The translations under genes were made by a program, and so were the position numbers. The notes under the pieces were generated by a model. It was not told the DNA's origin, did no database searches, and worked only from the letters and a program-made list of their open reading frames with translations. From a virus, in IMG/VR virus record IMGVR_UViG_3300017917_003057, positions 1 to 21,404 of that record: 21,404 bases of DNA, one strand, 5' to 3'. Of this stretch, positions 1,159 through 21,404 are shown piece after piece (the stretch's first letter is position 1; every line of letters begins with the position of its first letter).

Positions 1159-4100
1159 TTATCCTATGAATGTGACACTCCAGCTGTCGTTACTATCTAA
1201 GTTAACGTTACCTGTTATAACTTGTAATCTTATAGTGTCCCCGGCTATCAATTTGGCATAACCACTCATAGTAAAATGTGTTGCTGTACCAATGTTAGTA
1301 TCTGTTTCCCAGAATGCAATAATGTTTGCGCCCGAACCACTACTATTCTTTTGTAGACTTGCTTGATTTAAACCATTATTGGATCCAACACGTAATGTAG
1401 CTACAGCGTGGTATATTCCTGGTACTGGTGCAGTGAATATACCAGTAGCGTTGTTATAGTGGTCGCCTTGATTATAATCGACAACTTGATTGGTTATTGT
1501 AGTTCCGCCTGTATATTGCGTTGAAGTATTACCATACACTCGGAACGCTGGCAAGTTAGGTATACTAATAGCATTAGAACCAGTAACAATCACATTACTT
1601 GTAGTTGTAACAGCACCGTTACTCAAGAAGCTGGTTACATAAGTTCCTGCGGTAATCGTAGTATTTGAAGTTATACCAACAAGGTTACCGACACCAGTAA
1701 TATTACCCACACCAGCCGCTGCTAATGTCAAATTTCCTGTGGTTATTGTGTTGTTAACTGTAATATTACTGTTGGTTATAATATTACCAACTAGCAAGTT
1801 GCCAGTTAGAGATCCAACTGTTACCACAGTGGTTGCAGCACCCATATTAATTGCTGTGGCCACACCACCTAAGTTAATTGTAGTTGCCGTGGTGTTAAAC
1901 AAGTTACCTGTGGTTTGTGTAGTTACTAGACCACTTGCACCTTGTACAGTTAATGTACCAGCACTGGTAATACCAATACTGTTTTGTGTAGCAAGTGCTG
2001 TACTGGTAAGACTCATTCTTGCACCCAAACCAGCTGCAGTGTTGGCTGTTGCACTACTTGATGCATTCCATGCAAATGTACCACCATCTATACTGAACTG
2101 CCCCGCACCACTTGCATAGGTATTACGAGCCATCAATTGGCCGTTGGCCTGGAAGTACAGGTTGTTCATCATATAGCTGGCACTGTTTGACGAGCCGCCA
2201 GCAGTAATAGTAGTGTTATTACCTATGAAAACTGTTGTAATGTTGCTTGCTGTGGGATATGCGGTTACCACATTGCCTAAATACAATGCTGTATTAGCTG
2301 CCAACATTGACACCACATTAGCATTAGTATAGTTACTGCCACTAGCAACGATACCAGTTAGTAAACTACCGTTACCAATAAAGAAGTTACCGGTTACATT
2401 ACCTGTGGCAGTAAGAGCGCCTGTAACAGAAACTATACCTGTGCCGTTTGGAGTCAAACTTATGTTACCATTACTGCCTGTGATAATGCTCAACGCACCT
2501 GTGTCAACAATGTTGCCTGTAATGTTTAAGTTACCAGCAGTAATGTTGCCAGTTGTTGATATTGCGTTAGAACCAAAGCTGGCTAGCAATGTGGCCACAT
2601 TAGAATCATTGTAGTTAGCTGTTGCAGTAATTCCAGTTAACAATGCGCCGTTACCAACAAAATAACCAGCAGTAATATTACCTGTAGTAACAATAGTGTT
2701 GCTACCATAGCTACCCAAGAATGAAGCCACATTGGCGTTGCCATAGTTAGAACTACCACCAGTAATACCACTTAAGATGCTTGCACCATTTGGATAAATG
2801 ATTGTAGAACTGTTTGATGGTAATATTAAATTACCATTGGCTGAAAAGTCCCAACTATTACCGTTCGAACTAATCGCTACAGTGTTGCTTATTAAGAATA
2901 AATCTTGATCCTGTATATCAACATAGGTAGTGCCGTTACCAACATCTATCCTGGCGTTATTTGTACTAAACGTTATAGTTGCACCGTCACCGTTGGTAAT
3001 TCTACTAGGAACAGTTAAATTACCGTGTACGTCAAACTTCCAAATGCTGTTGCTTGCTCTTACGTAGGCATTGGCATTAACAGAACTTAATTCGATATCA
3101 TTAGCCGAGGCATTTCCAAGATTTGCTAGAGTTCCGAAAGTTAATCTACCGCCAACCGAATGTCCTGGGCTATCGCTAAAACCAATAGATTTAATACTAC
3201 TGTCCAGTATCCAAGTGTTTGCTGCGGAGTCTGTACCAAAATACCAATTACTTAAAGTAGTTGATAAAGAATTAAAACTTAATGTAATTGTATCACTGAC
3301 TGGGCCTGCTGGCTCATTGAAATTCCAATAGTATGATGAACTGTTGGCTAGCGTAACTGTATTGCCAGAAGTTTTTGTTCCATCGGGGAAAGTTAAGTTT
3401 CCTGTTGAATCGAACGCCCAAACACTAGTTCCTTTAACGATATTGGCTGCAATGTTACCAGTGTATGTTGGTAAGTATGCGGCTACATTGGCATCGTTGT
3501 AGGTGCTGCCTAAACCAGTTAAAATGCTTGTGCCGTTAGGGTATGTAAAGCTGCCTGCACTAACTGTAGCAGCACTAACGACACTAAACCCAGATATGTT
3601 GGCGCCGCTACTTGCAGTCATACCAACAATACCTTTTACATTAAGTAAAGTTCCTGCTTGGTTAAACGGAGTTTGTACACCACCCAAATCTATATTGCCA
3701 TTTGCAAAAGAAATGTTACTGATGTTGCCACTATATGTTGGCAAGTAACTAGCAACGTTTGTGTTACTGTAGTTTGAACTACCGCCAGTGCCAGTAAATG
3801 CTGTACCGTTAGCATAGTAGTAGCCTGTGGCAAAAATGTTACCAACACTAGTATTTGCTGTTACTGTTAAATTGCCAGGGAAACTTACATTACCAACATT
3901 ACTAAACACATAGCTGTATGTGTTTGCAACCAATGTAACATTTGGCTCGTTACCAGAAATATTACCAACTACAATGTTACCAGTTAGGTAACTGGCTACG
4001 TTAGTATTGCTGTAAGTTGTGTTGGCAACAATACCTGTCAGTAATGCGCCGTTACCAATAAAATAATTACCAGAAATGTTACCAGTATAAGTTGCTGTTG

Positions 4101-5922
4101 TTCCTGATGCGTTACCAATGTGTGTGCCAAGTAAATTACCAGCAGTAATGTTACCGGTAGTAACAATAGTATTGCTACCATAGCTGCCCAAGAAAGATGT
4201 TACGTTTGTGTTTCCATAATTGCTACTTGCAGTAATACCAGTTAGTAACGCACCGTTACCAATAAAGAAGTTACCGGTAATGTTGCCAGTTGCAACTACA
4301 GCACCACCTGCATATACATTGCCTGCAATGCCTGCACCACCCGATACTGTTAACGCACCAGTACTGGTTGAAGTTGCTGCTGTAGCAGATGTTACTTTAA
4401 GTGGTACTTGAACTGTTAAATCAGCGGTATTAAAGATCGCGTGTACGCTGCCATTTGGCGCAGCCAAACGACCTGCGCCCCCAATTACCACACTAGGGAA
4501 TCCAGCAACACTGGTATTAGGCTGAAGTGTTATGCTTCCTGGTCTGCTTACAGTATCGCCATAAATGTAAGCGCCAGTGTTAAATGTTAATGCGCTGGTA
4601 TTATTTGTAAGTGAAATATTAGCCGCAGATATGTTACCAGTATAAATTGGCAAATATGCTGCTACATTAGTATTACTATAAGTTGCAGGTAACCCAGTTA
4701 ATTGACTGCCGTTACCAAATATATAAGTGCCTGTAATATTTCCATTTACAGTAAACGCACCTGCTGCTACCGTAGCAACAACATCGTGGTCGTGTCCACC
4801 GCCTGCAATAATCTTAACTACTTTGCCTTCAGTGCCTGCGCCAACAATTAAGTTACCGCCCTGATTGCCTGCGCCGTTGCCTAAAGTATACAAATAAGCA
4901 TCGTTAGCTCGTACACTGTTACCAACAATATTAGGACTTAGGCCATCAAAGTTGCTGCTGGCAATACCCATATCAACATAATATGTTGCGTCGGTGCCGT
5001 TGTCGGCAGTAACAATATAATCTCCTGTAGCTGCATTTCCACTGTTAACATTTTCTAAGTTAATCTGAACATAGTCGTTATAATTACCGCTAGACTGAAC
5101 TATTGTTTGTTGCAGTGGAGTATAGCCTGCGGCTATACCAGTATACAATGCGTTAAAGCCTGTGGCAGCATTACCAAAGAACTGTCCACTATTACCACTG
5201 ATCTGTGTAATATTACCAATGATAGTAGAGTTACCAGTTACTATTAAGTTACCAATCGTAGCATTACCACCAACTTGAAGCGTAGTTGTATTAGTTGTGC
5301 CAGATACTGCTAGGCCAGTTAGTGTACCAACGGTGGTAATTCCTGTTTGACTGGCTGTGCCTATAGTGCCATATATTGTGTTAAATGTACCTGTGTTGCC
5401 GGTTACATTGCCTAAAAAGTAACCAGCAGAAATATTACCTACAGTTTCAATTTCTCCGGGTGCTGTTAGTACGCCCGTTTCATCAAATACCCAATCACTG
5501 ATTCCCACCGTCAAAGTTAAATCAGCACCATCTGTAGTAAGCGAAGTTGCTTTTACTGCGCCATTATACACCGTCAAATAAGCAGCGACATTAGTATTGC
5601 CGTAATTGGCATTAATTCCAGTCAGTTGACTACCATTACCAAACAAATAATTACCAGTAATATTAGCTGTTGTTAATATCACAACATTGCTGTTACTGGC
5701 CAAATATGAACTTACATTTGAATTAGCATAGTTAGCATTAGCTGATATATTAGCTAAGTCTGCAACTGTGGCTAGGGCGTATCCACCAGCAGAAACACCG
5801 TTCTGTAAATGTAAAGTGTAAGTGTCAGTGTTAAAGACCAGTTCACCTTGTAGGCCAGTAAAAGCTGCCACTGCTGCGCTATTGCCTCTTAATAATCTTA
5901 ATCGTCTGGTGCTTATTGTCAT
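1159..5922 (-). CDS. Giant repetitive tail fibre with C-terminal C1q-like domain, 1587 aa
   Basis: Residues 1-45 (RGNSAAVAAFTGLQGELVF..LHLQNG) match the short N-terminal motif of phage fibres and the Mtd N-terminal domain, which attaches the fibre to the baseplate. Residues about 60-1450 are Gly/Asn/Thr/Ser-rich and built from degenerate units: about ten copies of Y(G/S)NTNVA(S/A)YL, about nine of GNG(S/A)xLTG(I/L) or variants, and many GNITGN/GNISGN steps, giving an elongated beta-helical or triple-stranded shaft. Residues 1457-1587 look like a C1q/TNF-type jelly roll (GIFTAPVPGIYHAVATLR, then LIAGDTIRLQV, ending in WSVTFIG), a domain usually trimeric and able to bind ligands. The ATG overlaps the preceding stop by one base (TAATG). 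Cysteine is almost absent. Likely host-recognition fibre; the assignment as fibre is firm, the receptor is unknown. Confidence 0.92.
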   Translation of the reverse strand: MTISTRRLRLLRGNSAAVAAFTGLQGELVFNTDTYTLHLQNGVSAGGYALATVADLANISANANYANSNVSSYLASNSNVVILTTANITGNYLFGNGSQLTGINANYGNTNVAAYLTVYNGAVKATSLTTDGADLTLTVGISDWVFDETGVLTAPGEIETVGNISAGYFLGNVTGNTGTFNTIYGTIGTASQTGITTVGTLTGLAVSGTTNTTTLQVGGNATIGNLIVTGNSTIIGNITQISGNSGQFFGNAATGFNALYTGIAAGYTPLQQTIVQSSGNYNDYVQINLENVNSGNAATGDYIVTADNGTDATYYVDMGIASSNFDGLSPNIVGNSVRANDAYLYTLGNGAGNQGGNLIVGAGTEGKVVKIIAGGGHDHDVVATVAAGAFTVNGNITGTYIFGNGSQLTGLPATYSNTNVAAYLPIYTGNISAANISLTNNTSALTFNTGAYIYGDTVSRPGSITLQPNTSVAGFPSVVIGGAGRLAAPNGSVHAIFNTADLTVQVPLKVTSATAATSTSTGALTVSGGAGIAGNVYAGGAVVATGNITGNFFIGNGALLTGITASSNYGNTNVTSFLGSYGSNTIVTTGNITAGNLLGTHIGNASGTTATYTGNISGNYFIGNGALLTGIVANTTYSNTNVASYLTGNIVVGNISGNEPNVTLVANTYSYVFSNVGNVSFPGNLTVTANTSVGNIFATGYYYANGTAFTGTGGSSNYSNTNVASYLPTYSGNISNISFANGNIDLGGVQTPFNQAGTLLNVKGIVGMTASSGANISGFSVVSAATVSAGSFTYPNGTSILTGLGSTYNDANVAAYLPTYTGNIAANIVKGTSVWAFDSTGNLTFPDGTKTSGNTVTLANSSSYYWNFNEPAGPVSDTITLSFNSLSTTLSNWYFGTDSAANTWILDSSIKSIGFSDSPGHSVGGRLTFGTLANLGNASANDIELSSVNANAYVRASNSIWKFDVHGNLTVPSRITNGDGATITFSTNNARIDVGNGTTYVDIQDQDLFLISNTVAISSNGNSWDFSANGNLILPSNSSTIIYPNGASILSGITGGSSNYGNANVASFLGSYGSNTIVTTGNITAGYFVGNGALLTGITATANYNDSNVATLLASFGSNAISTTGNITAGNLNITGNIVDTGALSIITGSNGNISLTPNGTGIVSVTGALTATGNVTGNFFIGNGSLLTGIVASGSNYTNANVVSMLAANTALYLGNVVTAYPTASNITTVFIGNNTTITAGGSSNSASYMMNNLYFQANGQLMARNTYASGAGQFSIDGGTFAWNASSSATANTAAGLGARMSLTSTALATQNSIGITSAGTLTVQGASGLVTTQTTGNLFNTTATTINLGGVATAINMGAATTVVTVGSLTGNLLVGNIITNSNITVNNTITTGNLTLAAAGVGNITGVGNLVGITSNTTITAGTYVTSFLSNGAVTTTSNVIVTGSNAISIPNLPAFRVYGNTSTQYTGGTTITNQVVDYNQGDHYNNATGIFTAPVPGIYHAVATLRVGSNNGLNQASLQKNSSGSGANIIAFWETDTNIGTATHFTMSGYAKLIAGDTIRLQVITGNVNLDSNDSWSVTFIG
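2300..5740. repeat. Degenerate intragenic repeats of the fibre shaft
   Basis: The DNA shows many near-copies of the coding blocks for GNG-x-LTG and NTNVASYL. The clearest pair lies at about 2687-2757 and 4157-4230, which are almost the same over about 70 bases and encode the same FLGSYGSNTIVTTGNITAG stretch. Blocks around 2349-2404 and 4231-4286 are also nearly identical. Copies differ mostly at third codon positions, as expected for old tandem duplication with occasional recombination between units. The spacing is irregular and the repeats are coding, so this is not a CRISPR array. Confidence 0.85.
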
Positions 5923-6422
5923 TATAGTGTACCTAAGTCTTCAATCGGGTCGCTTACAAAAATATTAGCTGTAAATTCTGGATATGCTGTACCTACAACG
6001 ACCATTTGGCCCTGCGCTCCCCAATTATCGTCAACATAAGCAGGTTGCTGGGTATTGCCTGAAGTATAGTATATACTGTAGATATATTGTTCACGGTCAA
6101 ACGCATTTATGTTAATCACTGGAATAGTAACAGTACCTATGCCCGCTGTAGCATTGCTGATTGTTACATTGCTTTGAAAAATAACATTTGCGTTGCTGGT
6201 CACATAGTCGTCAATTACACTAAAAACCAAGGGCTGTACATTGCTAAGATTGTAGGGTTTTTGATCCTGATTTTGTACTTTTAATTTGATGATGTTGTCT
6301 ACACCTTTGTAGACTGTGATAGTTCTTGTGTACACGACTCTGTTCCTTTGTTCAATTTCGGGATCCGTAGCTATTTGTACTAGGATCGTATTGTCGTAGA
6401 TATATGTGTTTATCTGTTGCAT
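5922..6422 (-). CDS. Small phage structural protein upstream of fibre, 166 aa
   Basis: Opens at the ATG at 6422 and ends in TAATG overlap with the fibre start. There is no clear Shine-Dalgarno sequence. A T4-like late promoter motif lies only four bases upstream, so its transcript may be leaderless. The middle (VYKGVDNIIKLKVQNQDQKPYNLS, then FSVIDD, then TIPVININAFDREQYIYSIYY) has the strand pattern of N-terminal beta-sandwich domains found in baseplate or fibre-attachment proteins such as BppU, but this is a weak match. No membrane segment or signal peptide. As first gene of the late fibre operon it may be an adaptor or fibre-hinge protein; the exact role is not established. Confidence 0.75.
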   Translation of the reverse strand: MQQINTYIYDNTILVQIATDPEIEQRNRVVYTRTITVYKGVDNIIKLKVQNQDQKPYNLSNVQPLVFSVIDDYVTSNANVIFQSNVTISNATAGIGTVTIPVININAFDREQYIYSIYYTSGNTQQPAYVDDNWGAQGQMVVVGTAYPEFTANIFVSDPIEDLGTL

Positions 6423-6426
6423 AGAG

Positions 6427-6433
6427 TATTTAT
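6427..6433 (-). promoter_or_regulatory. T4-like late promoter motif
   Basis: The minus strand reads ATAAATA here, matching the core of the T4/cyanophage late promoter (TATAAATA) used by the gp55-gp33 sigma factor system. It sits directly before the first gene of the fibre operon, the right place for a structural-gene promoter. Transcription would start about 5-7 bases downstream, on or next to the ATG at 6422. A seven-base AT-rich match can occur by chance, so placement is the main support. Confidence 0.5.
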
Positions 6434-6465
6434 TTCAAAGCCATATTCAAATTACGGCAAAAAAA

Positions 6466-6855
6466 TTGCAGCTAAATAAATTCGTGCAAGAATACCAAAA
6501 ACTATTAGACGACTATCCCTTTCTAAGCTTTTTAACTTACGGGGGCAATGAATACATAGGCATTATACAAAATATAGATGATATAATTACCAGCATCTAT
6601 GATTTTGCAGTGCTAAAAACTCCTGAACAAAAACTCTTATACTTAGAACTAGGAGAAGCGTGGTGGTGGGAAAGTAATAGGATGGTTCCTATTAATATAT
6701 TCTTGAAAACAGAATGGAACCCGTTTAGACCTACGCTAAAAACATTCAACAGTAAAGATGTTGAAGTAAAATACGGGCCAGCGTTAAGCCTTAAAGAAAA
6801 CGCTCAAAAGCGTTCAAAGCGTCGAAGCATTACCCTTGTACGAAGGGTCATTTAA
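6466..6855 (+). CDS. Conserved T4-like phage protein on the opposite strand, about 129 aa
   Basis: This is the only convincing plus-strand gene. The frame is open from a GTG at 6406, but that start lies inside the divergent gene; a TTG at 6466 or GTG at 6484 is more likely, and neither has a good Shine-Dalgarno sequence. The protein contains YGGNEYIGIIQN (about residues 25-36 from the TTG), a WWWESNR segment, an FLKTEWNPFRP..KTFNSKDVEVKYGP block, and a basic tail QKRSKRRSITLVRR. From memory this pattern belongs to a conserved uncharacterised family in cyanophage-like T4 relatives. The basic tail suggests nucleic-acid contact, which is inference. It converges on the mini-DnaE gene and overlaps its 3' end by 42 bases. 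Confidence 0.75.
   Translation: MQLNKFVQEYQKLLDDYPFLSFLTYGGNEYIGIIQNIDDIITSIYDFAVLKTPEQKLLYLELGEAWWWESNRMVPINIFLKTEWNPFRPTLKTFNSKDVEVKYGPALSLKENAQKRSKRRSITLVRRVI
6799..6814 (-). terminator. Probable intrinsic terminator after the mini-DnaE gene
   Basis: On the minus strand a 6-bp stem AACGCT / AGCGTT with a TTTG loop begins at the stop codon of the gene ending at 6814 and is followed by TTCTTT. The stem is short and only half GC, so strength is uncertain, but it is the natural end of the operon that starts upstream of uvsW and faces a convergent gene. Confidence 0.45.
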
Positions 6856-7413
6856 ATTCATGTTTACAGCTACTAATGTTGCGTAGCTGACACTGTGGCT
6901 CTTTTTGAAGAAATAACTGTTGTCTTGAGGTTTATCCCAAACAGTAGCAGCAACTTCACGCCAAGTTTTACCAATTAAATGTCGTTTGGCAGGACGGATT
7001 ACTGCTAGAAACATAGCCATTCTAGGTATGCTGTCTACGGGCTCGGGCATTTTTATCAGTGTATCGTAATGGTTACCTATGTGAATTAACTGCTCACAGA
7101 ATTCTCTGTTATACAAATTTGCCCAATTGGGTTCAGTTTGCATAAGTTCCAATAAATGTTGTTCGCTGGCAACTCTTGTGTAAACGCTGACATTCAAAAA
7201 GTCCAGTTTCAAATAGCCCCTATCTTCGGCAGCTTCATAATCTAAACTGGCATAACCTGTAAAAGGATCTTGGGGGATACTTTGAAAATAAACACCTGTA
7301 TTATGCTTGGATACTTTGCTATCTTTGATCATACTAGCAGGCGTATGCTTTAACAATGCCAGTATTTGGTCTCTATTGGCAAAATCGATGTCGATGTCTG
7401 ACTTAAACTTCAT
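6814..7413 (-). CDS. Miniature DNA polymerase III alpha (DnaE)-like protein, 199 aa
   Basis: The start is set by the ATGA overlap with the upstream gene (ATG at 7413, preceded by GGAAAAAAGA). Residues 5-16 (SDIDIDFANRDQ) match the DnaE motif DFDVDF-x3-KRDQ, giving the catalytic pair D8 and D10. Residues 36-41 (KHNTGV) resemble the DnaE HAAGV motif. Residues 67-75 (YLKLDFLNV) match LVKFDFLGL, which carries the third catalytic aspartate (here D71). An IRP at 139-141 recalls the RPGP motif, and 171-178 (KSHSVSYA) matches KSHAAAYA. The motifs are in DnaE order but squeezed into 199 residues, against more than 1100 for DnaE; the PHP domain, most of the fingers, the clamp-binding region and OB fold are absent. 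Possible minimal polymerase, end-processing enzyme, or non-catalytic partner of the phage replisome. The resemblance is read by eye. Confidence 0.7.
   Translation of the reverse strand: MKFKSDIDIDFANRDQILALLKHTPASMIKDSKVSKHNTGVYFQSIPQDPFTGYASLDYEAAEDRGYLKLDFLNVSVYTRVASEQHLLELMQTEPNWANLYNREFCEQLIHIGNHYDTLIKMPEPVDSIPRMAMFLAVIRPAKRHLIGKTWREVAATVWDKPQDNSYFFKKSHSVSYATLVAVNMNLNDPSYKGNASTL
6832..6848 (+). terminator. Small hairpin at the 3' end of the plus-strand gene
   Basis: ACCCTT and AAGGGT form a 6-bp stem around a 5-base loop inside the last codons of the plus-strand gene. No real T-run follows, so it may be a weak terminator or an mRNA 3'-end structure only. Confidence 0.25.
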
Positions 7414-7619
7414 TCTTTTTTCCATTTTAGCGAAAATAATGTGGCATAACTTTCGCAATGATCTTCAAAGTAAAATACTGTTATTTGCTCTTGCGGTTTG
7501 AACTGCCAGTTATAATCAAGTTTGTCAACTAGTCCGTGTTGTTTACACCAACGGCTCAACTCAATTGACATGTCAGCACCAGTTCGTTGATCTCTCCACG
7601 GTACTTCTACCCTGATCAT
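7410..7619 (-). CDS. Small conserved phage protein of unknown function, 69 aa
   Basis: ATG at 7619 overlaps the stop of the zinc-finger gene by four bases and its own TGA overlaps the mini-DnaE start by four, so it is translationally coupled on both sides. The sequence is soluble and aromatic-rich (WRDQRTGAD, ELSRWCKQHGLVD, YNWQF, VFYFEDHCESYATLFSLKW), with no motif I recognise. The strict coupling to the DnaE-like protein suggests the two could work as a pair or be made at equal level; this is inference. Confidence 0.75.
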   Translation of the reverse strand: MIRVEVPWRDQRTGADMSIELSRWCKQHGLVDKLDYNWQFKPQEQITVFYFEDHCESYATLFSLKWKKE

Positions 7620-8299
7620 AGCCCTGCCTGCTGTAGTATGTTTTTTATATATTCTGTGTCAGCAACATAATCTTTAAATTTACGCTGCCAAAAATCGGGA
7701 TCAATCCAGGGCATGATGATTGTTAATTGTTCTTCATTTAACGAGCTGAGAAATTCAACGCCGCTGTCGCAGTTGTAAACAATCCACGGACTGATTCTAC
7801 CATTTGCAATGTGATGACAAATAATATTAGTGCCACCTTGTCGAAAGTAATCTAAAAATCCGTTTGCTAACTGCGGATGACTGTCGCTGTAGTCCTGCAT
7901 TTCTTTAAATGCTCGCTCCACTGCATCATCAACACTTTCCTTACGCATATACTGTTGTAGCCATTCTACATAAAATGCATCTTTAGTCCATTGGTCTAGT
8001 TTTTTATTGTTCTTCAACAGCCAATCTGCATAACTGCCGAAGTTAACACATCTAATGCCTCTACAATGGCGTCCAAACTTTACAAAAGCTGAATAAAAAC
8101 TACTGCCAGCAAAGTCATCATAGGTTTTTAGTTTAGCACTGCCCTGCGTAATTTCATAAAATCTCAAATAAGCCTTATAACCCAACTGCACATCAGGATC
8201 GTTTTGATTCTGTGCTCGGCGTTTAGGCTCACAAAGATGGGCACTAAGTGTACTTTCTTTTGTGTATGACTTTTTGCAGTATTGGCAAGTAAATGTCAA
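7616..8299 (-). CDS. Zinc-finger phage protein, 227 aa, conserved in T4-like phages
   Basis: The N-terminus carries a single zinc finger with ligands C5, C8, H21 and C23 (C-x2-C-x12-H-x-C), followed by a basic patch CEPKRR. The body contains GYKAYLRFYEITQGSAK, AFVKFGRHCRG, a helical DDAVERAFKEMQDY segment, and a C-terminal GRISPWIVYNCDSGVEFL..PWIDPDFWQRKF block. I recall this layout (finger, then the RISPW and PDFW blocks) from uncharacterised cyanophage proteins. Nucleic-acid binding is likely from the finger plus basic patch. ATGA overlaps connect it with the genes on each side. The function in the phage is not known to me. Confidence 0.8.
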   Translation of the reverse strand: MTFTCQYCKKSYTKESTLSAHLCEPKRRAQNQNDPDVQLGYKAYLRFYEITQGSAKLKTYDDFAGSSFYSAFVKFGRHCRGIRCVNFGSYADWLLKNNKKLDQWTKDAFYVEWLQQYMRKESVDDAVERAFKEMQDYSDSHPQLANGFLDYFRQGGTNIICHHIANGRISPWIVYNCDSGVEFLSSLNEEQLTIIMPWIDPDFWQRKFKDYVADTEYIKNILQQAGL

Positions 8300-8760
8300 C
8301 CTAATTCCTTTTTAATGTCCTGATCAGTCATGCCCATTTTTTTAGCCAGCTCTTTTAATTCTTTGTCAGAATTAATTTCAGCTAACAACTCTGCTTCATC
8401 CTGTTTGATGTGTGGATAAAGTTTAATAATAAATTTTACTGCCTTGTTGTTTGCACTGTCTTTCTTTTTGGCAGCTTGCCAGTAATGCCTCTGAAGGCCC
8501 ATACCTGGACTAATAGTTGCACACAGCAACCATTGTAGTTTTGGATGTCGGTTTAAGTCAAAGAAGTTTTGATTTACACGGTCATTGGTAGCTCTAAGGT
8601 ACCATTCTTGAAGATCCGGAGAACCTTGTACACTGGCTGCATAACGCAACATTAAGTAAGTACTAAACTTCTTGCGCTCTTCATCGTTAAGCTCATCGTA
8701 GAAGTCATAGTTTTTGGCATCTAGTTGTGCCATTTCATTGTTGATTGATAGTTTATCCAT
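8296..8760 (-). CDS. Conserved T4-like phage protein; weak resemblance to clamp-loader small subunit gp62
   Basis: Starts at ATG 8760 (TAATG overlap) and ends in an ATGA overlap. The protein (154 aa) is charged and largely helical: KKFSTYLMLRYAASVQGSPDL, then a NRHPKLQWLL segment, SPGMGLQRHYWQAAKKK, and a C-terminal lysine-rich helix with EINSDKELKELAKKMG. The order 'Y-L-x-x-R-x-x-S ... D-L ... HPKLQ ... W-x-x-x-KKK' loosely follows that of gp62, which has Y-x-x-N-x-x-L-S, an ANEMN helix and a basic R/K-x-x-K-W. It may be a distant gp62 relative or an unrelated helical protein; the similarity is too weak to name it. Neighbouring polymerase-like and zinc-finger genes fit a DNA-metabolism role. 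Confidence 0.7.
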   Translation of the reverse strand: MDKLSINNEMAQLDAKNYDFYDELNDEERKKFSTYLMLRYAASVQGSPDLQEWYLRATNDRVNQNFFDLNRHPKLQWLLCATISPGMGLQRHYWQAAKKKDSANNKAVKFIIKLYPHIKQDEAELLAEINSDKELKELAKKMGMTDQDIKKELG

Positions 8761-10462: not shown

Positions 10463-11269
10463 TTATTTGTTTTTACAGTTGTCAAAATGATAACGTTTTA
10501 AACCGCTGGCGCCACCTACAAACAAGCAGTGAGGACACATTAATCGATCTTGCTTAATTCCTCTACGTTTTTCTCCGTTTAGTATATTTGCATTTGTGAG
10601 ATTAGTCAAGTGTTCTTTACTTCTTGGTGGTTTTGGTATACCAGTTAACGGACTTACATAGCCGTTTTCTCGTTTTTCTTTCCAAGTCTCGTTGATTTTT
10701 TTCATAAAATCTTCACTGTGTTTTTTGCCAGTCATTCCTGCGTTGTGGCCTTTCTTACCTTCACTAACTTTTTGGCAAAATTCAACTGAGCGTTTTCTAC
10801 CAGTTAATGTGTATGAACGCTTTTTATTTGATTCTTCAGAATGTACTATTCCTGTTACACCTTTATTCCAGGGCGTTCTGCCCCGGGCACGGTTAGACAT
10901 TTTAATCTTGGATTCGATACTATGTTTTTTACCAATTCGTGCTTGGGATATTGTTTCCCTTATCTTTTTATATTCCCAAGATGTAAATATACGGTCCTGC
11001 CCGGGCGATGATTGAACAAATTTGCCAACTGCAAACTTCATCAGCTGCTGATGATGCCCAGTTACCATTTTAATTAAAAGTAAATGACATACAAAATGCT
11101 CGCGAGCGGTTAGTCTTGCAATATTACTTTTGTCATCTGTACCATTTAAACTACGGGGAATAATATGATGCTTTTCGATGTAACCCTCAATGTTTCTATG
11201 CTGGGAGTTTTTAATTATATTAAAATACCAACGAGTGTATTTGTTTTCTAAAAAGACTATTCTTGCCAA
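10463..11269 (-). CDS. Free-standing HNH homing endonuclease with NUMOD3-like repeats, 268 aa
   Basis: Residues about 32-66 carry the HNH core: EKHHIIPRSLNGTDDKSNIARLT followed by AREHFVCHLLL. The middle has several GKKHSxExxxKMS / GRKRSVEFCQKVSEG / GKKHSEDFMKKI units typical of NUMOD3 DNA-binding repeats in phage homing endonucleases. The C-terminus has a zinc-finger-like C-P-H-C ... H-F-D-N-C. The start is TTG at 11269 with GGAG eight bases upstream, both inside the last codons of uvsW (13-base overlap). It makes a site-specific break in an allele lacking the insertion so that the gene copies itself. It splits no gene visibly: uvsW keeps its full C-terminus. Basic composition contrasts with the neighbours. 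Confidence 0.9.
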   Translation of the reverse strand: MARIVFLENKYTRWYFNIIKNSQHRNIEGYIEKHHIIPRSLNGTDDKSNIARLTAREHFVCHLLLIKMVTGHHQQLMKFAVGKFVQSSPGQDRIFTSWEYKKIRETISQARIGKKHSIESKIKMSNRARGRTPWNKGVTGIVHSEESNKKRSYTLTGRKRSVEFCQKVSEGKKGHNAGMTGKKHSEDFMKKINETWKEKRENGYVSPLTGIPKPPRSKEHLTNLTNANILNGEKRRGIKQDRLMCPHCLFVGGASGLKRYHFDNCKNK

Positions 11270-12717
11270 TTTATTTTCTCCAAAGAATAATTGTATTTAG
11301 CTTCTTTGTAAAAACTCTTGCGTTTAGTAAGGTGTCGTTTTGCAAATTTGCAGGTGCTGGTAATGTCCCAAATTTCAACATGGTCTTTATCCTGCGCTTT
11401 TCTAATACCTCGCCCAATAGACTGTATAACCCTGACAAAGCTCTTTCCGGGCTCCACAAGAACCAAATTAAAGATCCTAGGAATATTAATGCCCACAGCG
11501 GCCACACCATAAGTCGCCACAATAACCTTCCCATCTGAGACAGCCACCTCATCATATTCTTCCTTTCGATCTTTTGCTTTGGTTGCACCACTGACAAATA
11601 CAGCGTTATTGATTTTACTGGCCAATTCTTTACCTGGGCCAACTCTATCTACTAGAACCAGTGTATTACCTGATTCAGCAATTTTATTAATCACTGAACT
11701 GATATAATCTATTCTAGATTCAGTTTCTAGCAAGTAACGCAGTTCTTGTTGATAGTCTTTGTACTCAACATAGTCTACCAATTGAACTATATTTACATGA
11801 CAGTTGCTGAGATGACCTGCTTCTTGAAGTTCGCTGGCGCTGAGTCTACCCATTACAGGCCCAATGCAACAATTTAAGGCTTGAAAAGCAAAGTCTTCTT
11901 TAGGAATAGTTCCTGTTAGTCCCCAACGAATAGGAGTGCGAGCAAACACTGAAGTTAGTAGTGTTTTAAGTGCATCTGCTTTGGCACTGTGAGCTTCGTC
12001 TACCATAACGCAGACAACATTTTCTACAAATTCATTTATAGTAACATCTGCTTCATAGTTTTTAGTGTTCTTTAACAAGGTGTTCAAACTTTGCCAAGTA
12101 CAGATAGTATGTGTGCGATTATATTCTTTTCTATCGCCAAACAATACACCAACATCCAGGCCCATGTTGATATAGTCTGCTTCTGTTTGTGTTACTAAAC
12201 TTTTACTGGGCACAATAACAACACTACGACCATATTTTTGCACACTTGCAGACAGGGCCGCTGTCATGATGGTTTTACCTGCACCTGTGGCTACTTCTTG
12301 TATACACTGCGGATTTTCTAAAAATTTATTAACAATCTCAACTTGATAATCACGCAACAGTATAGGATCGCCCGCCGCAGGATGACCTTTAGGCCATTTT
12401 ATATCCTGAAATGTAGTTTCAGTTACGGGTTCAAATTCAAAAGTAACGCTGTATTCTCTACGGTCTTGTATGTCAATATCATATCCCCGTTCTTCAATGA
12501 TGGGCAGTATTTCGGGCAGTAAGTTAATGTAAGTACTGCCGCCTAGATTAAAGTAAGGCACTTTGCCGTCCCAACGACCAAGTCGAACTGCAGGCAAGTA
12601 TCTTGCTCCGGGTATTTCGTATTTGAACTTTTCAACTAATCGTTTACGGTCAGTTAGTTCAAGATTGTGAAGTTTACAATTTACTTCGTCTTTGATTTCA
12701 ATTATACAGGTTGTCAT
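11257..12717 (-). CDS. uvsW: UvsW-type superfamily 2 DNA helicase, 486 aa
   Basis: Full-length compared with T4 UvsW (about 500 aa). The N-terminal 1-110 has the UvsW DNA-binding domain pattern (RYLPAVRLGRWDGKVPYF). Helicase motifs: Walker A ATGAGKT at 143-149, motif Ia IVPSKSLVTQ, DEAH at 240-243, LTGTIPK at 267-273, and motif VI QSIGRGIRK at 432-440. In T4, UvsW unwinds R-loops, branches and Holliday junctions, drives fork regression, and helps switch origin-dependent to recombination-dependent replication. Its start overlaps the HARP-like gene by ATGA, so both are made together. The 3' end carries the TTG start and ribosome site of the HNH gene. No truncation is visible. Confidence 0.96.
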   Translation of the reverse strand: MTTCIIEIKDEVNCKLHNLELTDRKRLVEKFKYEIPGARYLPAVRLGRWDGKVPYFNLGGSTYINLLPEILPIIEERGYDIDIQDRREYSVTFEFEPVTETTFQDIKWPKGHPAAGDPILLRDYQVEIVNKFLENPQCIQEVATGAGKTIMTAALSASVQKYGRSVVIVPSKSLVTQTEADYINMGLDVGVLFGDRKEYNRTHTICTWQSLNTLLKNTKNYEADVTINEFVENVVCVMVDEAHSAKADALKTLLTSVFARTPIRWGLTGTIPKEDFAFQALNCCIGPVMGRLSASELQEAGHLSNCHVNIVQLVDYVEYKDYQQELRYLLETESRIDYISSVINKIAESGNTLVLVDRVGPGKELASKINNAVFVSGATKAKDRKEEYDEVAVSDGKVIVATYGVAAVGINIPRIFNLVLVEPGKSFVRVIQSIGRGIRKAQDKDHVEIWDITSTCKFAKRHLTKRKSFYKEAKYNYSLEKINWQE

Positions 12718-16410: not shown

Positions 16411-17439
16411 TTATTCGGCGGGCTTCATGCAAGTGGTTGCTGCCATGGCCTTCCAACGCAAGGGGAAGCTCTTGCGAAGATCTGCAATCTTCAGTGCCAT
16501 ACGCAGGCTCATCTCACGCAATTTATTTTGGTTTTCGTACATGAAGTCCAAAATCTCTTCACGGCCAATGTCACCAAAATCATAGTCCTGGAACAATTCA
16601 CCGTCACCGGCAATTTGCTTGATGCGAAGGAACTTGTCACGCATGGTGTCCAAGGTCAAGTCTAGATAGTGACAACGGCTTTGCAGTGCATCCAAGTGGT
16701 CACGCAACTTTTGGCTCTTCATTTTGTCAAACTTCAAGTTGGTAATGAAAATAATACTGCCGTTGAAGTTGAACTGATCTGGCACACCTTCACGGCGCAA
16801 CATAGAACTGTCACTCAACCAACTGATCTTACGCTTCTTGCCTGAGTCCAGGGCACCCTTCAATAAGTTAAGAGCAACATCGTCAAGAAGGATGCTGTCA
16901 CAATCGTCAAACACCAAGACGCAATTAGGGTCAGAATACTTGTAAAGAGTACAGTACAGGCCAAGAGCAGTGGCTGAACCTTTGACAACTTCTGCACGAA
17001 GACGCTTGCCAGCGATCTGATCAAATAAGCAGGCCTTTTCAACTTCAGTTTCAACGCCATAAGATTTACCAACCCCAGGAGGGCCACTCACAATCATAGC
17101 ACGAATGTCGCCGTTAGTAGCGGCTTTAGTCATTTCATGCAGAATTTCAAAACGCTCGCGGATACGAACCATTGCATCTTCGTCGGACTCGCTCACGGTG
17201 GCCTTAGCACTTACAGTGGCTTCATTAACTGTGGGCTCACCAGATACAAATTCGTAAGCGTCAACACCAGAAACTTTGATGCGGATGGTGTCGGGAAAAC
17301 CAGGGAAAGTGTCGCCGTTACGAACAGTAACATGACCACCTGTTGCGGTGCGTTTATACTGCTCAACCAATTCAAAGGTCTTGCCGTTAACTTTTTGGTT
17401 ACGATAAGTGCCTTTGCTGATACGAATCACTGCTGACAT
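16411..17439 (-). CDS. AAA+ ATPase, phage type, 342 aa
   Basis: The start MSAVIRIS (ATG at 17439) is chosen because AAGGAG lies five bases upstream; the frame is open further but lacks a ribosome site. Residues 1-65 form a small beta-rich domain (HVTVRNGDTFPGFPDTIRIKVSG). Walker A GPPGVGKS is at 119-126, Walker B VLVFDDCD at 174-181, a sensor-1-like IIFITN ends at N234, and a candidate arginine finger is R255 in LQSRCHYLDL. The C-terminal lid has EEILDFMYENQNKLREMSLRMALKIADL. The layout is that of clamp-loader/MoxR-like ATPases of T4-like phages; substrate unknown. It has its own promoter and stands apart from uvsW, consistent with early expression. Confidence 0.88.
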   Translation of the reverse strand: MSAVIRISKGTYRNQKVNGKTFELVEQYKRTATGGHVTVRNGDTFPGFPDTIRIKVSGVDAYEFVSGEPTVNEATVSAKATVSESDEDAMVRIRERFEILHEMTKAATNGDIRAMIVSGPPGVGKSYGVETEVEKACLFDQIAGKRLRAEVVKGSATALGLYCTLYKYSDPNCVLVFDDCDSILLDDVALNLLKGALDSGKKRKISWLSDSSMLRREGVPDQFNFNGSIIFITNLKFDKMKSQKLRDHLDALQSRCHYLDLTLDTMRDKFLRIKQIAGDGELFQDYDFGDIGREEILDFMYENQNKLREMSLRMALKIADLRKSFPLRWKAMAATTCMKPAE

Positions 17440-17469
17440 ACTAGCTCCTTGTTGTTTCATCATGTCATT

Positions 17470-17498
17470 ATTATAGCAAATTAACCATTTTCGAGCAA
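17470..17498 (-). promoter_or_regulatory. Sigma70-like promoter of the AAA+ ATPase gene
   Basis: Minus strand: -10 box TATAAT (17475-17470) and a weak -35 box TTGCTC (17498-17493) separated by 17 bases. The leader of about 25 bases carries the AAGGAG ribosome site. The -35 box is part of the shared 9-mer GGGTATTGC. Confidence 0.75.
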
Positions 17499-17499
17499 T

Positions 17500-17547
17500 A
17501 CCCATTCTTAGTGATGGGTTATTACAATTGTAATACTAAAGTATTAC
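17500..17547 (-). terminator. Paired hairpins after the membrane-protein gene
   Basis: On the minus strand the stop codon at 17546-17544 is part of a hairpin with 7-8 bp arms (GTAATAC / GTATTAC on the plus strand, 17530-17547). The 14-base palindrome ATTACAATTGTAAT (17521-17534) follows, and then a 6-bp stem ACCCAT / ATGGGT (17500-17519). There is no T-run, so a conventional terminator is not certain. The layout matches that after the 51-aa gene. Confidence 0.45.
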
Positions 17548-18435: not shown

Positions 18436-19185
18436 CTATTTAATGTCTACAATCATTTCTTCAGCTAGTTCTGCATCACTTAAGAACGGAGTCATATCAT
18501 GCAGACCTGCTTGTTTACCGTTTTTCAATGCTTGGGCAGGTAATATTTCTTGATTCTTTAAACAAACACAATCAAAAATAATTTGGCCGCCGTACCCACT
18601 TAGTAAGCTGGCATAGCGATCAAAATCGTCCTGTGTTGAAATTTTGAAATACTCAAAGCCAAAAGTCTCTGCTACAAGTTTAAAGTCTGGAAACCATAAA
18701 CCTTTTTCACGGCTGGTTCCGTAAACACGGCCATCAAAGTATTTTTCCTGTGTGTTTTTAATGCTGAGATAGCCGCCGTTGTTTAGCAGTACAATACTTA
18801 CATTTAAGTTATGCTCTCTTATTACGGCCAGCTCTTGAATGTTACTCATAAAGCTGCCGTCACCAGTAATACAAATTACGGGTCGATTACCATTGGCCAG
18901 TGCTACCCCAATGGCGCCCGGTACTGCCCAACCCATATCTGCTTGAGCAGGACTAAACACTAATTTTTGTCCTGGCTTTGTTTCTAATGCCGTAGGACCA
19001 GCATAGCTAATGCTACCAGCATCACCCATTAGAACTTGTTCAGGCCTACTATGCGTGTTAATCCAATCTAGAACTGCATAGATGTTGACAGCACCTGTGG
19101 TGTTGTCTGCTGAATATTCAGGTTGAATTACAGGCCATTTTTGTTTCCAGTGTAAACACTTTGCTAACCATTCTGTTCTTGTCAT
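18436..19185 (-). CDS. TPP-dependent enzyme, C-terminal (TPP-binding) subunit of a split YerE/ALS-like enzyme, 249 aa
   Basis: The protein corresponds to the TPP-binding domain of acetolactate-synthase-type enzymes. The diphosphate/Mg motif is GDGS at 108-111, followed at the usual distance by NNGGY (135-139); MGWAVPGAIGVALA at 84-97 matches the MG-x-x-LP-x-AIG-x-x-A stretch before it. SIKNTQEKYFDGRVYGTS resembles the SIRQTQ..F-x-GR-x-VG-x-S segment of polysaccharide-cluster TPP enzymes such as YerE, which move a two-carbon unit from pyruvate to a keto sugar. In most relatives it is fused to the N-terminal domains; here those are in the preceding gene, joined by an ATGA overlap. Both chains together (584 residues) equal one normal enzyme. 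Confidence 0.88.
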   Translation of the reverse strand: MTRTEWLAKCLHWKQKWPVIQPEYSADNTTGAVNIYAVLDWINTHSRPEQVLMGDAGSISYAGPTALETKPGQKLVFSPAQADMGWAVPGAIGVALANGNRPVICITGDGSFMSNIQELAVIREHNLNVSIVLLNNGGYLSIKNTQEKYFDGRVYGTSREKGLWFPDFKLVAETFGFEYFKISTQDDFDRYASLLSGYGGQIIFDCVCLKNQEILPAQALKNGKQAGLHDMTPFLSDAELAEEMIVDIK

Positions 19186-20189
19186 AGCATTGCCTCAAAA
19201 AAGTTTTCTAAGTAATCGTTGTACTTGTGATCAATATGTACAATATCTTTGTTTAATTCATTCCAGTCAATGTCAACAAGAACTTTAGTGCTAGCAGGAC
19301 TAAACTGTCGAGGGTCATATCCAACAACACTAGCATTTAAACTACTGCCCAAAATCAGCAATAAGTCGCAATTTTGAACAGCAAAGTTTCCGGCTCTACT
19401 GCCTTTTTGTCCCACAGTGCCCATACTGTAGTGATGGTTACCAGGTGTGTAATCTCGGCCGCCGTAAGTGCTGGCAAAGGGCAGTTGATATTTTTCGATG
19501 AATTCATTGAATTCAGCGACGGTATTACTTTGTCTAATACCGTATCCTGCCAATATCAAAGGTCGTTCTGCTGTCACTAACAATTCTTTAACCACAGTGT
19601 AGTCCTGTGGTTTAACTAAGCTAGCCGGCGGATGAAATTGTCTAGGATTATCAGGCATTTCTGCTAATTGGATATTGCCAGGAATATCAATCCACACGGG
19701 CCCGGGCCTGCCTGTTTGCGCTAACCAAACTGCTTGTTGTAACATATAAGCAACATCTTTTACATCAGTAATAAACTCGCTTAGTTTAGTCATTGAACGG
19801 TATGTTTCCACAACATGGTGTTCTTGAATTCCGTACTTGCGAATGTTAAGACCTTTTTCTTTATTAATGTAACCACTACAAGTATCAAGTCTTACATTAC
19901 CACTGATGAACAGCACAGGCACACTGTCTTGCCAAGCATTTAATACGCTGGTAGCGCAGTTGGTACCAGCACAGCCTGTTGTTGGGTTAACTACTGCTAG
20001 TTGACCTGTATACTTGCTTTCACCAATGGCAGCATGACCAGCACCCTGTTCATGATGATAACAAATATACGGCAAACCCGATTTAATAAAGCCATCGTTA
20101 AGACCAGCAGCACCACCACCCATAAGGCCATGTACACGCTTGACTCCAATTGACTGCAAATACTGGGGGATCCAATCACATACTCTCAT
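19182..20189 (-). CDS. TPP-dependent enzyme, N-terminal and middle domains of a split YerE/ALS-like enzyme, 335 aa
   Basis: Residues 1-165 are the pyrimidine-binding domain: GVKRVHGLMGGGAAGLND, then the cofactor-activating glutamate E47 in YHHEQGAGHAAIG, PTTGCAGTN, and ISGNV. Residues about 200-330 are the central domain (AERPLILAGYGIRQS, FASTYGGRDY, GTVGQKGSRAGNFAVQNCDLLLILGSSLN). The gene ends where the linker to the TPP-binding domain would be, at the ATGA start of the next gene. Normal relatives carry all three domains on one chain of 550-600 residues. GGACT precedes the ATG at 20189, overlapping the end of the RfbH gene. Expected role: two-carbon transfer from pyruvate to a keto sugar nucleotide rather than amino-acid synthesis. 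Confidence 0.88.
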   Translation of the reverse strand: MRVCDWIPQYLQSIGVKRVHGLMGGGAAGLNDGFIKSGLPYICYHHEQGAGHAAIGESKYTGQLAVVNPTTGCAGTNCATSVLNAWQDSVPVLFISGNVRLDTCSGYINKEKGLNIRKYGIQEHHVVETYRSMTKLSEFITDVKDVAYMLQQAVWLAQTGRPGPVWIDIPGNIQLAEMPDNPRQFHPPASLVKPQDYTVVKELLVTAERPLILAGYGIRQSNTVAEFNEFIEKYQLPFASTYGGRDYTPGNHHYSMGTVGQKGSRAGNFAVQNCDLLLILGSSLNASVVGYDPRQFSPASTKVLVDIDWNELNKDIVHIDHKYNDYLENFFEAML

Positions 20190-20197
20190 TCTAGTCC

Positions 20198-21404
20198 TTA
20201 AATGTATAAACTAATAAAGCCTTGAACAATTTTACCAATGTAAGCAATTTGCTCAGGTGTAATCACAGGACTTGTTCCGTGGAAGTAAGTATGTGTCATA
20301 GCATGAGTTGCTCGAGGGAAATTGTTTTTAGCCGCAGTCGGATCCATCAAATGGCTGTAAGCTGGCTGTAACATAATATTGCCAGCAAAATACGGACGAG
20401 TCTGAATAAGGTTTTCTTCCAAATAGTCTACTATATCACTTCGACTAAATGGTGCGCCCTGCCTTATTGTTAAGGGAAAAGCAAACCATGATGGATCCGA
20501 CTTAGCCTGTGCTCTAGGTAAGTGGAAAAATTCTTCATAGGGTTTATAAATGTCAAACAACAATTTATAATTACGCCTACGAAGTTTATGAATCTCGGGC
20601 AACTTCTTCAACTGCTCGAGACCCATGGCACACTGTAGTTCGATTGGTTTTAGATTGTAACCAATTTCATCATATACATATTTGTGGTCAAACACTTCAT
20701 CGGGCAGTGTTGGAATCCAATTGTTAAATCGCTTACCGCAAGTACCACATTTAAGTTTGTTGGCTTCGGGTCCTACACAATAGCAACCACGACCCCATTC
20801 TCGGAAACTACGCAAAATAATTTCTTGTTCAGCGTCATTAGTAGCAACAAAGCCGCCTTCACCCATGGTCATATGGTGTGCAGGATAAAAACTACATGAG
20901 GACATAAGGCCAAAACTGCCTAAAGGAACGCCGTCGTACATACTGCCTAGTGCATCACAACAATCTTCTAATAGAATTAGATTATAGCGTTTGACTAAAT
21001 CCATTAGTCTATGCATGTTAGGAGGATTGCCTAGTACATGAGCAAATGTAATTACACGGATAGAAGGATCCGAGCTTAGTTGCATTTCAACTTGATCTAA
21101 ATCTAGATTAAGTGTGTCCAGTTCAATGTCTACAAACACGGGCTCAAAGCCCATTTGCAGTGTAGGATTAAGTGTGGTGGGGAATCCGGCGATAGGCATT
21201 AAAACTTTAGTGCCCTTAGGTAAATTATAACCACGCTTGCTAGTTAATGATGCCATCATTAACAAGTTACTGCTGCTGCCGCTGTTGGTAACAATGCCAC
21301 GAGTTTTACCAAATTGTTGGGGGAACTCATGCTCAAACTTAAGGCCTGCATCGCCCATGGCCAGCCAGCCTTTGAGTAAACTTTCAACTCCTGCTACATA
21401 TTCG
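20198..21404 (-). CDS. rfbH: RfbH-type CDP-4-keto-6-deoxyglucose 3-dehydrase (partial, 5' end outside window)
   Basis: The frame is open to the window edge; 401 codons are visible. Counting from the Met encoded at 21358, SFYPAHHMTMGEGG at 156-169 carries His in place of the PLP lysine of ordinary DegT aminotransferases, the mark of PMP-dependent E1 dehydrases. Cysteines C134 (EDCCDALG), C192, C194 and C204 follow C-x57-C-x-C-x9-C, close to the C-x57-C-x-C-x7-C iron-sulfur pattern I recall for E1, and KCGTCGKRF matches TCGKRF. The enzyme removes the 3-hydroxyl of CDP-4-keto-6-deoxyglucose, with a reductase (E3) giving a 3,6-dideoxy-4-keto sugar. No reductase is in this window. Host O-antigen type sugar synthesis is implied. 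Confidence 0.93.
   Translation of the reverse strand, partial: EYVAGVESLLKGWLAMGDAGLKFEHEFPQQFGKTRGIVTNSGSSSNLLMMASLTSKRGYNLPKGTKVLMPIAGFPTTLNPTLQMGFEPVFVDIELDTLNLDLDQVEMQLSSDPSIRVITFAHVLGNPPNMHRLMDLVKRYNLILLEDCCDALGSMYDGVPLGSFGLMSSCSFYPAHHMTMGEGGFVATNDAEQEIILRSFREWGRGCYCVGPEANKLKCGTCGKRFNNWIPTLPDEVFDHKYVYDEIGYNLKPIELQCAMGLEQLKKLPEIHKLRRRNYKLLFDIYKPYEEFFHLPRAQAKSDPSWFAFPLTIRQGAPFSRSDIVDYLEENLIQTRPYFAGNIMLQPAYSHLMDPTAAKNNFPRATHAMTHTYFHGTSPVITPEQIAYIGKIVQGFISLYI

What the first reader, a model, noticed from the sequence alone, without database searches (positions are those of the whole stretch)
6814..7413. A 199-aa miniature of the bacterial replicative polymerase (DnaE) core
The protein keeps, in the right order, the D-x-D motif (D8/D10), an HAAGV-like KHNTGV, the third catalytic aspartate in KLDFLN (D71), an RP motif and the KSHxxxYA motif of C-family polymerases, yet it is about one sixth of normal length and lacks PHP, most finger, clamp-binding and OB parts. 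It is co-translated with a zinc-finger protein and a charged helical protein. Either it is a minimal nucleotidyl-transferase or a binding module that kept the fold.
Basis: partly seen in the sequence, partly recalled or inferred. Interest (0 to 1): 0.8.

Follow-up and report, generated by a model that had tools for sequence, protein, structure and literature searches.

The report
Half of a split mini DNA polymerase
This gene encodes the catalytic-metal half of a tiny two-piece version of the bacterial replicative DNA polymerase that large T4-like phages carry beside their ordinary polymerase; the family was predicted in 2021, and we found no report of an activity test.

Summary
The 199-aa protein at 6814-7413(-) is a real member of a widespread jumbo-phage family (PHROG 11778; 63 phage records, at least 600 IMG/VR stretches). 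Profile and structure comparisons align it with bacterial DnaE/PolC from the catalytic aspartates to the steric-gate helix, without the thumb and most of the fingers. All three catalytic aspartates are invariant in 133 relatives. It is not a stand-alone miniature. [quoted passage not shown] The two proteins meet end to end: the partner aligns to E. coli DnaE 277-396 and this protein to 397-784. Nearly every record with one half has the other (59 of 60 listed phage records; 8 of 8 large IMG/VR records). None of those eight has a detectable full-length DnaE; all have a family B polymerase. Iyer et al. (2021) already described this split minimal Pol III alpha, so it is a new member of a known kind. 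Most likely it is the metal/dNTP-binding subunit of a two-subunit C-family DNA polymerase. The partner is not in this 21-kb fragment; activity is untested.

The parts
6814..7413 (-). C-terminal half of a split minimal Pol III alpha (PHROG 11778): D6/D8 and D71 = E. coli DnaE D401/D403/D555; K69 = K553; H37 = H511; R140 = R639; K171 = K758; H173 = steric gate H760
7616..8299 (-). Zinc-finger protein (PHROG 11058, unknown function; N-terminal C2H2-like motif), conserved upstream neighbour that overlaps its own neighbours in the run
8296..8760 (-). 154-aa charged protein (PHROG 11758, unknown function), conserved in the same gene run
7410..7619 (-). 69-aa protein between the zinc-finger gene and the polymerase half; not conserved in the family (9 of 134 loci), so probably not part of the system
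6406..6855 (+). Convergent gene (PHROG 11637, unknown function) overlapping the 3' end of the polymerase half; convergent homologue in 110 of 112 related loci
11257..12717 (-). UvsW-like helicase, upstream neighbour in 35 of 36 related loci with enough flank

Best explanation
The protein is the C-terminal subunit of a two-subunit, minimal C-family (Pol III alpha-type) DNA polymerase of T4-like jumbo phages. Homology and placement of the two halves are shown here by sequence and predicted structure; assembly and catalysis are inferred. A separate about 170-aa protein (PHROG 11127) supplies the first part of the polymerase beta-like palm with the GRGS loop, the predicted nucleotide-binding part. 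This protein supplies the strand with the two metal-binding aspartates (D6, D8), the strand with the third (D71, with K69), the arginine of the RP motif (R140) and the KSH helix whose histidine (H173) is the steric gate for deoxyribose. Together they rebuild one palm plus the nucleotide-binding part of the fingers (about 375 aa instead of 1160) and would add deoxynucleotides to a primer by two-metal catalysis. Without a thumb, clamp-binding motif or OB fold, it should be distributive and depend on other phage replication proteins. Since the same genomes carry a family B replicase, the likeliest job is a limited one: primer extension next to the primase-helicase, or gap filling or repair.
For: Homology: PHROG 11778 E=1.4e-62; hhalign to DnaE E=1.4e-10, far above shuffled controls. 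Structure: AlphaFold2 pLDDT 93.1, pTM 0.83. All 15 PDB entries with Z above 4 are DnaE or PolC, led by the PolC ternary complex 3f2c (Z 9.5, 193 residues, rmsd 4.1); the next, unrelated entry has Z 3.7. Partner: PHROG 11127, Pfam DNA_pol3_alpha E=4.6e-9, PDB DnaE E=3e-5, model aligned to E. coli 277-396. This protein aligns to E. coli 397-784, and the two ranges also abut in PolC (967|968), Taq (458|459) and 5lew (416|417). Concatenated halves from 10 genomes align collinearly to DnaE, E=4.2e-21. Co-occurrence: 59 of 60 listed phage records with the C half also have the N half; 8 of 8 IMG/VR records of 302-371 kb have both, tens to hundreds of kb apart. In these, the only match to the full-length alpha model is the N half, and all carry a family B polymerase. 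Active-site conservation: D6, D8, D10, H37, K69, D71, R140 and H173 are invariant in 133 relatives, and GRGS is invariant in the N halves. H760 is the steric gate and D401/D403/D555 the active-site residues in E. coli (PMC8485763). dN/dS median 0.08 over 162 pairs.
Against: I found no biochemical test of either half. The partner gene is not in this 21-kb fragment; its presence in this phage is inferred from the closest large relative. The N-half model alone is only moderate (pLDDT 76.8, pTM 0.55, with the GRGS loop under 50), and the complex could not be modelled. Loss of the thumb may abolish ordinary template-directed synthesis. No fused version was seen among 199 C halves.
Confidence: 0.69

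Rival explanations
1. One reading: a self-sufficient minimal nucleotidyltransferase or polymerase of 199 aa that works alone.
For: It carries all three metal ligands, the RP arginine and the steric-gate histidine, and the lone chain is predicted to fold confidently.
Against: It lacks the GRGS-bearing start of the palm, which is conserved as a separate gene ending exactly where this one begins and found in nearly every record that has this gene.
Confidence: 0.05
2. One reading: the pair still folds and binds nucleotide, DNA or replication proteins, but it is a catalytically dead structural or regulatory module of the phage replisome.
For: Thumb and most of the fingers are gone, a family B replicase is present, and neighbouring genes are replication genes.
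Against: Complete invariance of all catalytic and dNTP-contacting residues in 133 relatives down to about 30% identity is not what a dead enzyme usually shows.
Confidence: 0.13
3. An active nucleotidyltransferase with a job other than templated DNA synthesis, such as untemplated end addition or modification of a nucleotide or protein, using the polymerase-beta-like palm.
For: The palm belongs to the polymerase beta-like nucleotidyltransferase fold, and the template-gripping thumb is missing (D8 to H37 is 29 residues, against 108 in E. coli).
Against: The steric-gate histidine and the KSH helix typical of C-family DNA polymerases are kept, and the genes lie among primase, helicase, UvsW and clamp-loader genes.
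Confidence: 0.12
4. A pseudogene or truncated relic of a host dnaE gene.
For: Only about one sixth of the normal length; one paper called the partner half 'truncated' (PMC5259590).
Against: Same boundaries in all relatives, invariant active site, dN/dS median 0.08, and no close bacterial relative in the one genome scan.
Confidence: 0.01

Closest known systems
Split minimal DNA polymerase III alpha of group 2.2 jumbo phages (Iyer et al. 2021, Viruses 13:63, PMC7824862); PHROG 11778 and PHROG 11127
   Same: Same family: phage-specific minimal Pol III alpha split into an N-terminal NTP-binding and a C-terminal Mg2+/template-binding protein encoded at distant loci, beside a family B polymerase. 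That PHROG 11778 and 11127 are the two proteins of that paper is my inference from its description; its figure was not readable.
   Different: Nothing essential. Added here: the exact junction (E. coli DnaE 396|397), the residue map including the steric gate, invariance in 133 relatives, co-occurrence counts, and conserved gene neighbours. The window's protein is a new sequence, at most 77% identical to those found.
Bacterial DnaE / PolC (Pol III alpha, C-family polymerase)
   Same: Palm strands with D401/D403/D555 equivalents, K553, HAGGV-like motif, RP motif and KSH helix with H760; GRGS in the partner protein.
   Different: Two polypeptides instead of one; no PHP, thumb, most of the fingers, HhH, beta-binding motif, OB or C-terminal domain.
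Truncated 'Pol III alpha' CBB_328 and relatives (RaK2 ORF162, 121Q gp56, Atu_ph07 gp316)
   Same: These are the other half of the same system.
   Different: They hold the GRGS part and none of the catalytic aspartates.

Membership tests
Split minimal Pol III alpha of jumbo phages (C half) | Significant match to the family profile over nearly the whole length | tested here: met
   PHROG 11778, E=1.4e-62, residues 2-187
Split minimal Pol III alpha of jumbo phages (C half) | Three metal-binding aspartates and KSH motif conserved | tested here: met
   D6, D8, D71 and H173 invariant in 133 sequences
Split minimal Pol III alpha of jumbo phages (C half) | Partner N half encoded elsewhere in the same genome | tested here: inconclusive
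   Absent from the 21-kb fragment; present in the closest large relative (77% identity, 338.5 kb) at 331.4 kb, with the C half at 94.2 kb
Split minimal Pol III alpha of jumbo phages (C half) | Family B polymerase in the same genome | tested here: inconclusive
   Not looked for in the fragment itself; found in 8 of 8 large related records
C-family DNA polymerase (DnaE/PolC) | C-family palm fold with D401/D403/D555 equivalents | tested here: met
   only for the part this half covers
C-family DNA polymerase (DnaE/PolC) | PHP, thumb, full fingers, beta-binding, OB and C-terminal domains in one chain | tested here: not met
   199 aa; D8 to H37 is 29 residues against 108 in E. coli, R140 to H173 33 against 121, little after the KSH helix. 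It is therefore filed as a split minimal variant, not as a DnaE
C-family DNA polymerase (DnaE/PolC) | Template-directed dNTP polymerisation | not testable with these tools
   No biochemical data found

The most novel reading that the evidence does not exclude
The pair is an active, thumb-less two-subunit C-family polymerase of about 375 aa that extends primers at the phage fork (a Pol alpha-like hand-off enzyme beside primase and helicase) before the family B replicase takes over. Its active site would be assembled from two chains, and it would be far smaller than the C-family polymerases characterised so far.
Probability: 0.25. Interest if true: 0.75.

Novelty: new member of a known kind. Interest (0 to 1): 0.45.

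Why it matters
A C-family polymerase cut down to palm and nucleotide-binding helix and divided between two genes would show the minimum needed for this kind of catalysis. It also raises the question of why phages that already own a family B replicase keep it under strong purifying selection. The precise split point makes a direct reconstitution test easy to design. The idea was published in 2021, so the gain here is sharper evidence, not a new kind of system.

Tried and rejected
Single-sequence searches were too weak for homology: Pfam gave nothing, NCBIfam polc E=0.041, PDB phmmer nothing. The profile A1 against PDB sequences also gave only spurious P-II protein hits, so homology rests on hhalign, PHROG profiles and structure. 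The Foldseek PDB search alone was marginal (best E=1.4e-3), presumably because large parts are deleted; VIA-align gave full-length matches. I looked for a fused version of the two halves: tblastn segments that seemed to run upstream (L184, L201, L222 and others) have no GRGS upstream, and several have stop codons in the extension; none in 199 C halves (some loci are fetched twice). A relic of a host dnaE was rejected (dN/dS 0.08). The single match among bacterial and archaeal genomes is a 3.7-kb contig of an archaeal MAG (L175), probably a misbinned phage contig. Trans-splicing by a split intein was considered: the N halves end at EFL[KRE] with at most a few more residues, so there is no room for an intein. 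The 69-aa neighbour as a third subunit was rejected because it is not conserved. The first alignment of N halves failed on a coordinate slip for L103.

Full report
Check of the observation. The minus-strand ORF 6814-7413 encodes 199 aa from an ATG that overlaps the stop of the upstream gene. It sits in a run of overlapping minus-strand genes (9044 to 6814). It matches PHROG 11778, 'DNA polymerase', with E=1.4e-62 over residues 2-187. tblastn finds it in 63 phage records, nearly all of them jumbo phages of about 285-490 kb (RaK2-like, Atu_ph07, PA5oct, XacN1, SCTP-2 and others), and in at least 600 IMG/VR stretches.

Relation to DnaE. Single-sequence searches of Pfam, NCBIfam and PDB did not establish the link. 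A profile of 133 relatives aligned by hhalign to a DnaE profile (E. coli plus six phage DnaE) gives score 84.6, probability 96.9%, E=1.4e-10, while 30 column-shuffled versions reach at most 23.0. The alignment of concatenated halves gives this residue map: D6=D401, D8=D403, D10=D405; H37=H511; K69=K553; D71=D555; R140=R639; P141=P640; K171=K758; H173=H760. In E. coli, D401, D403 and D555 are the active-site residues and H760 is the steric gate (PMC8485763). Deleted relative to E. coli: everything before 397, about 80 residues between D403 and H511 (thumb region), about 90 between R639 and H760 (fingers), and everything after about 784.

Structure. The AlphaFold2 model from 58 sequences has mean pLDDT 93.1 and pTM 0.83. 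VIA-align places residues 1-196 on DnaE/PolC palms: 3f2c Z 9.5 (193 residues, rmsd 4.1), Taq 4iqj Z 9.4, E. coli 4jom Z 8.3. The 15 DnaE/PolC entries have Z 6.3-9.5, and the next, unrelated entry has Z 3.7. Foldseek alone was marginal (best E=1.4e-3).

Conservation. D6, D8, D10, H37, G40, P47, K69, D71, W97, I139, R140, P141, K143 and H173 are identical in all 133 relatives, which reach down to 30% identity to the window protein. Median dN/dS is 0.08 over 162 pairs with dS 0.2-1.5.

The other half. Iyer et al. 2021 (PMC7824862) report that group 2.2 jumbo phages have a minimal Pol III alpha split into an N-terminal NTP-binding and a C-terminal Mg2+/template-binding protein encoded by distant genes. 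I tested this directly. Atu_ph07 gp316 (PHROG 11127, E=1.7e-70) matches Pfam DNA_pol3_alpha (E=4.6e-9), and a profile of 17 N halves matches E. coli DnaE up to residue 393/394 (E=3e-5). GRGS is invariant. All N halves end within a few residues of the EFL[KRE]-type motif. The N-half model aligns to E. coli 277-396, and the window protein to 397-784. The same exact abutment appears in PolC (967|968), Taq (458|459) and 5lew (416|417). Concatenated halves from ten genomes align collinearly to DnaE with E=4.2e-21. The N half modelled alone is weaker (pLDDT 76.8, pTM 0.55) and its GRGS loop is below 50, as expected if it needs its partner, though the alignment was also shallow (12 sequences).

Co-occurrence. 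Of the 60 listed phage records with the C half, 59 are also among the listed N-half records; the exception, PP728206, is a 109-kb record, and the N-half list was cut at 60 rows. Of eight IMG/VR records of 302-371 kb, all eight have both halves, all eight have a family B polymerase, and none has a match to the full-length alpha model other than the N half. An RNase_T/DnaQ-type exonuclease is found in five of the eight. Three N-half contigs of about 110 kb lack the C half, but they are probably fragments. In the closest large relative of the window (338.5 kb, 77% identity) the C half lies at 94.2 kb and the N half at 331.4 kb. In XacN1 the two halves are only about 15 kb apart. The window itself, a 21-kb fragment, has no N half. 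No fused gene was seen in 199 C halves.

Neighbourhood. Around the C half, the zinc-finger protein (PHROG 11058) is present in 129 of 133 loci, the 154-aa protein in 117 of 125, the 103-aa protein in 59 of 64, UvsW in 35 of 36, and the convergent PHROG 11637 gene in 110 of 112. In named phages primase and DnaB/gp41-type helicase follow a few genes downstream, while the N half lies near the gp44 clamp loader in several. In this window the genes on that downstream side are tail-fibre-like instead.

Mechanism. Shown: homology, complementary coverage of one palm by two genes, invariant active site, co-occurrence, purifying selection. Inferred: the two proteins bind each other, form one active site and add deoxynucleotides; low processivity; a limited role such as primer extension or gap filling beside the family B replicase. 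A dead structural module, and an active transferase with another substrate, remain possible.

Novelty. The family, its split and its company with a family B polymerase were published in 2021 as a prediction; the partner had been noted earlier as a truncated or predicted Pol III alpha (PMC5259590; PMC6102473). I found no experimental test in the searched library, which lacks most subscription journals. This is a new member of a known kind, with sharper evidence.

Noticed in passing
18436-20189 (-): A thiamine-pyrophosphate enzyme (acetolactate-synthase type) encoded as two adjacent overlapping genes: N plus middle domains (19182-20189) and C domain (18436-19185). Next to it is a DegT/DnrJ/EryC1 aminotransferase (20198-21358), suggesting a phage sugar- or surface-modification cluster.
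   Followed up: partly
7616-8299 and 8296-8760 (-): Two proteins of unknown function (PHROG 11058, C2H2-like zinc finger; PHROG 11758) stay next to the polymerase half in almost every relative; candidates for accessory subunits.
   Followed up: partly
6406-6855 (+): PHROG 11637 gene of unknown function, convergent with and overlapping the 3' end of the polymerase half; convergent homologue in 110 of 112 related loci.
   Followed up: partly
10463-11269 (-): HNH/NUMOD3 homing endonuclease-like gene directly downstream of, and overlapping, the UvsW helicase gene.
   Followed up: no
1159-5922 (-): 1587-aa repetitive fibre-like protein with an Mtd_N-like start and a C1q-like end.
   Followed up: no
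16411-17505 (-): AAA+ ATPase of PHROG 1250, unknown function, with weak similarity to clamp-loader and helicase-loader families.
   Followed up: no
L175:1704-2234: A 47% identical relative of the C half on a 3.7-kb contig of a Natrialbaceae archaeon MAG; probably a misbinned phage contig.
   Followed up: no
phage records NC_073456, PP405126, MW055913: Other phage DnaE polymerases appear split over two annotated genes (for example ChewyVIII gp70/gp72, Wollypog gp56/gp59 with an HNH endonuclease between), apparently independent of the jumbo-phage split.
   Followed up: no
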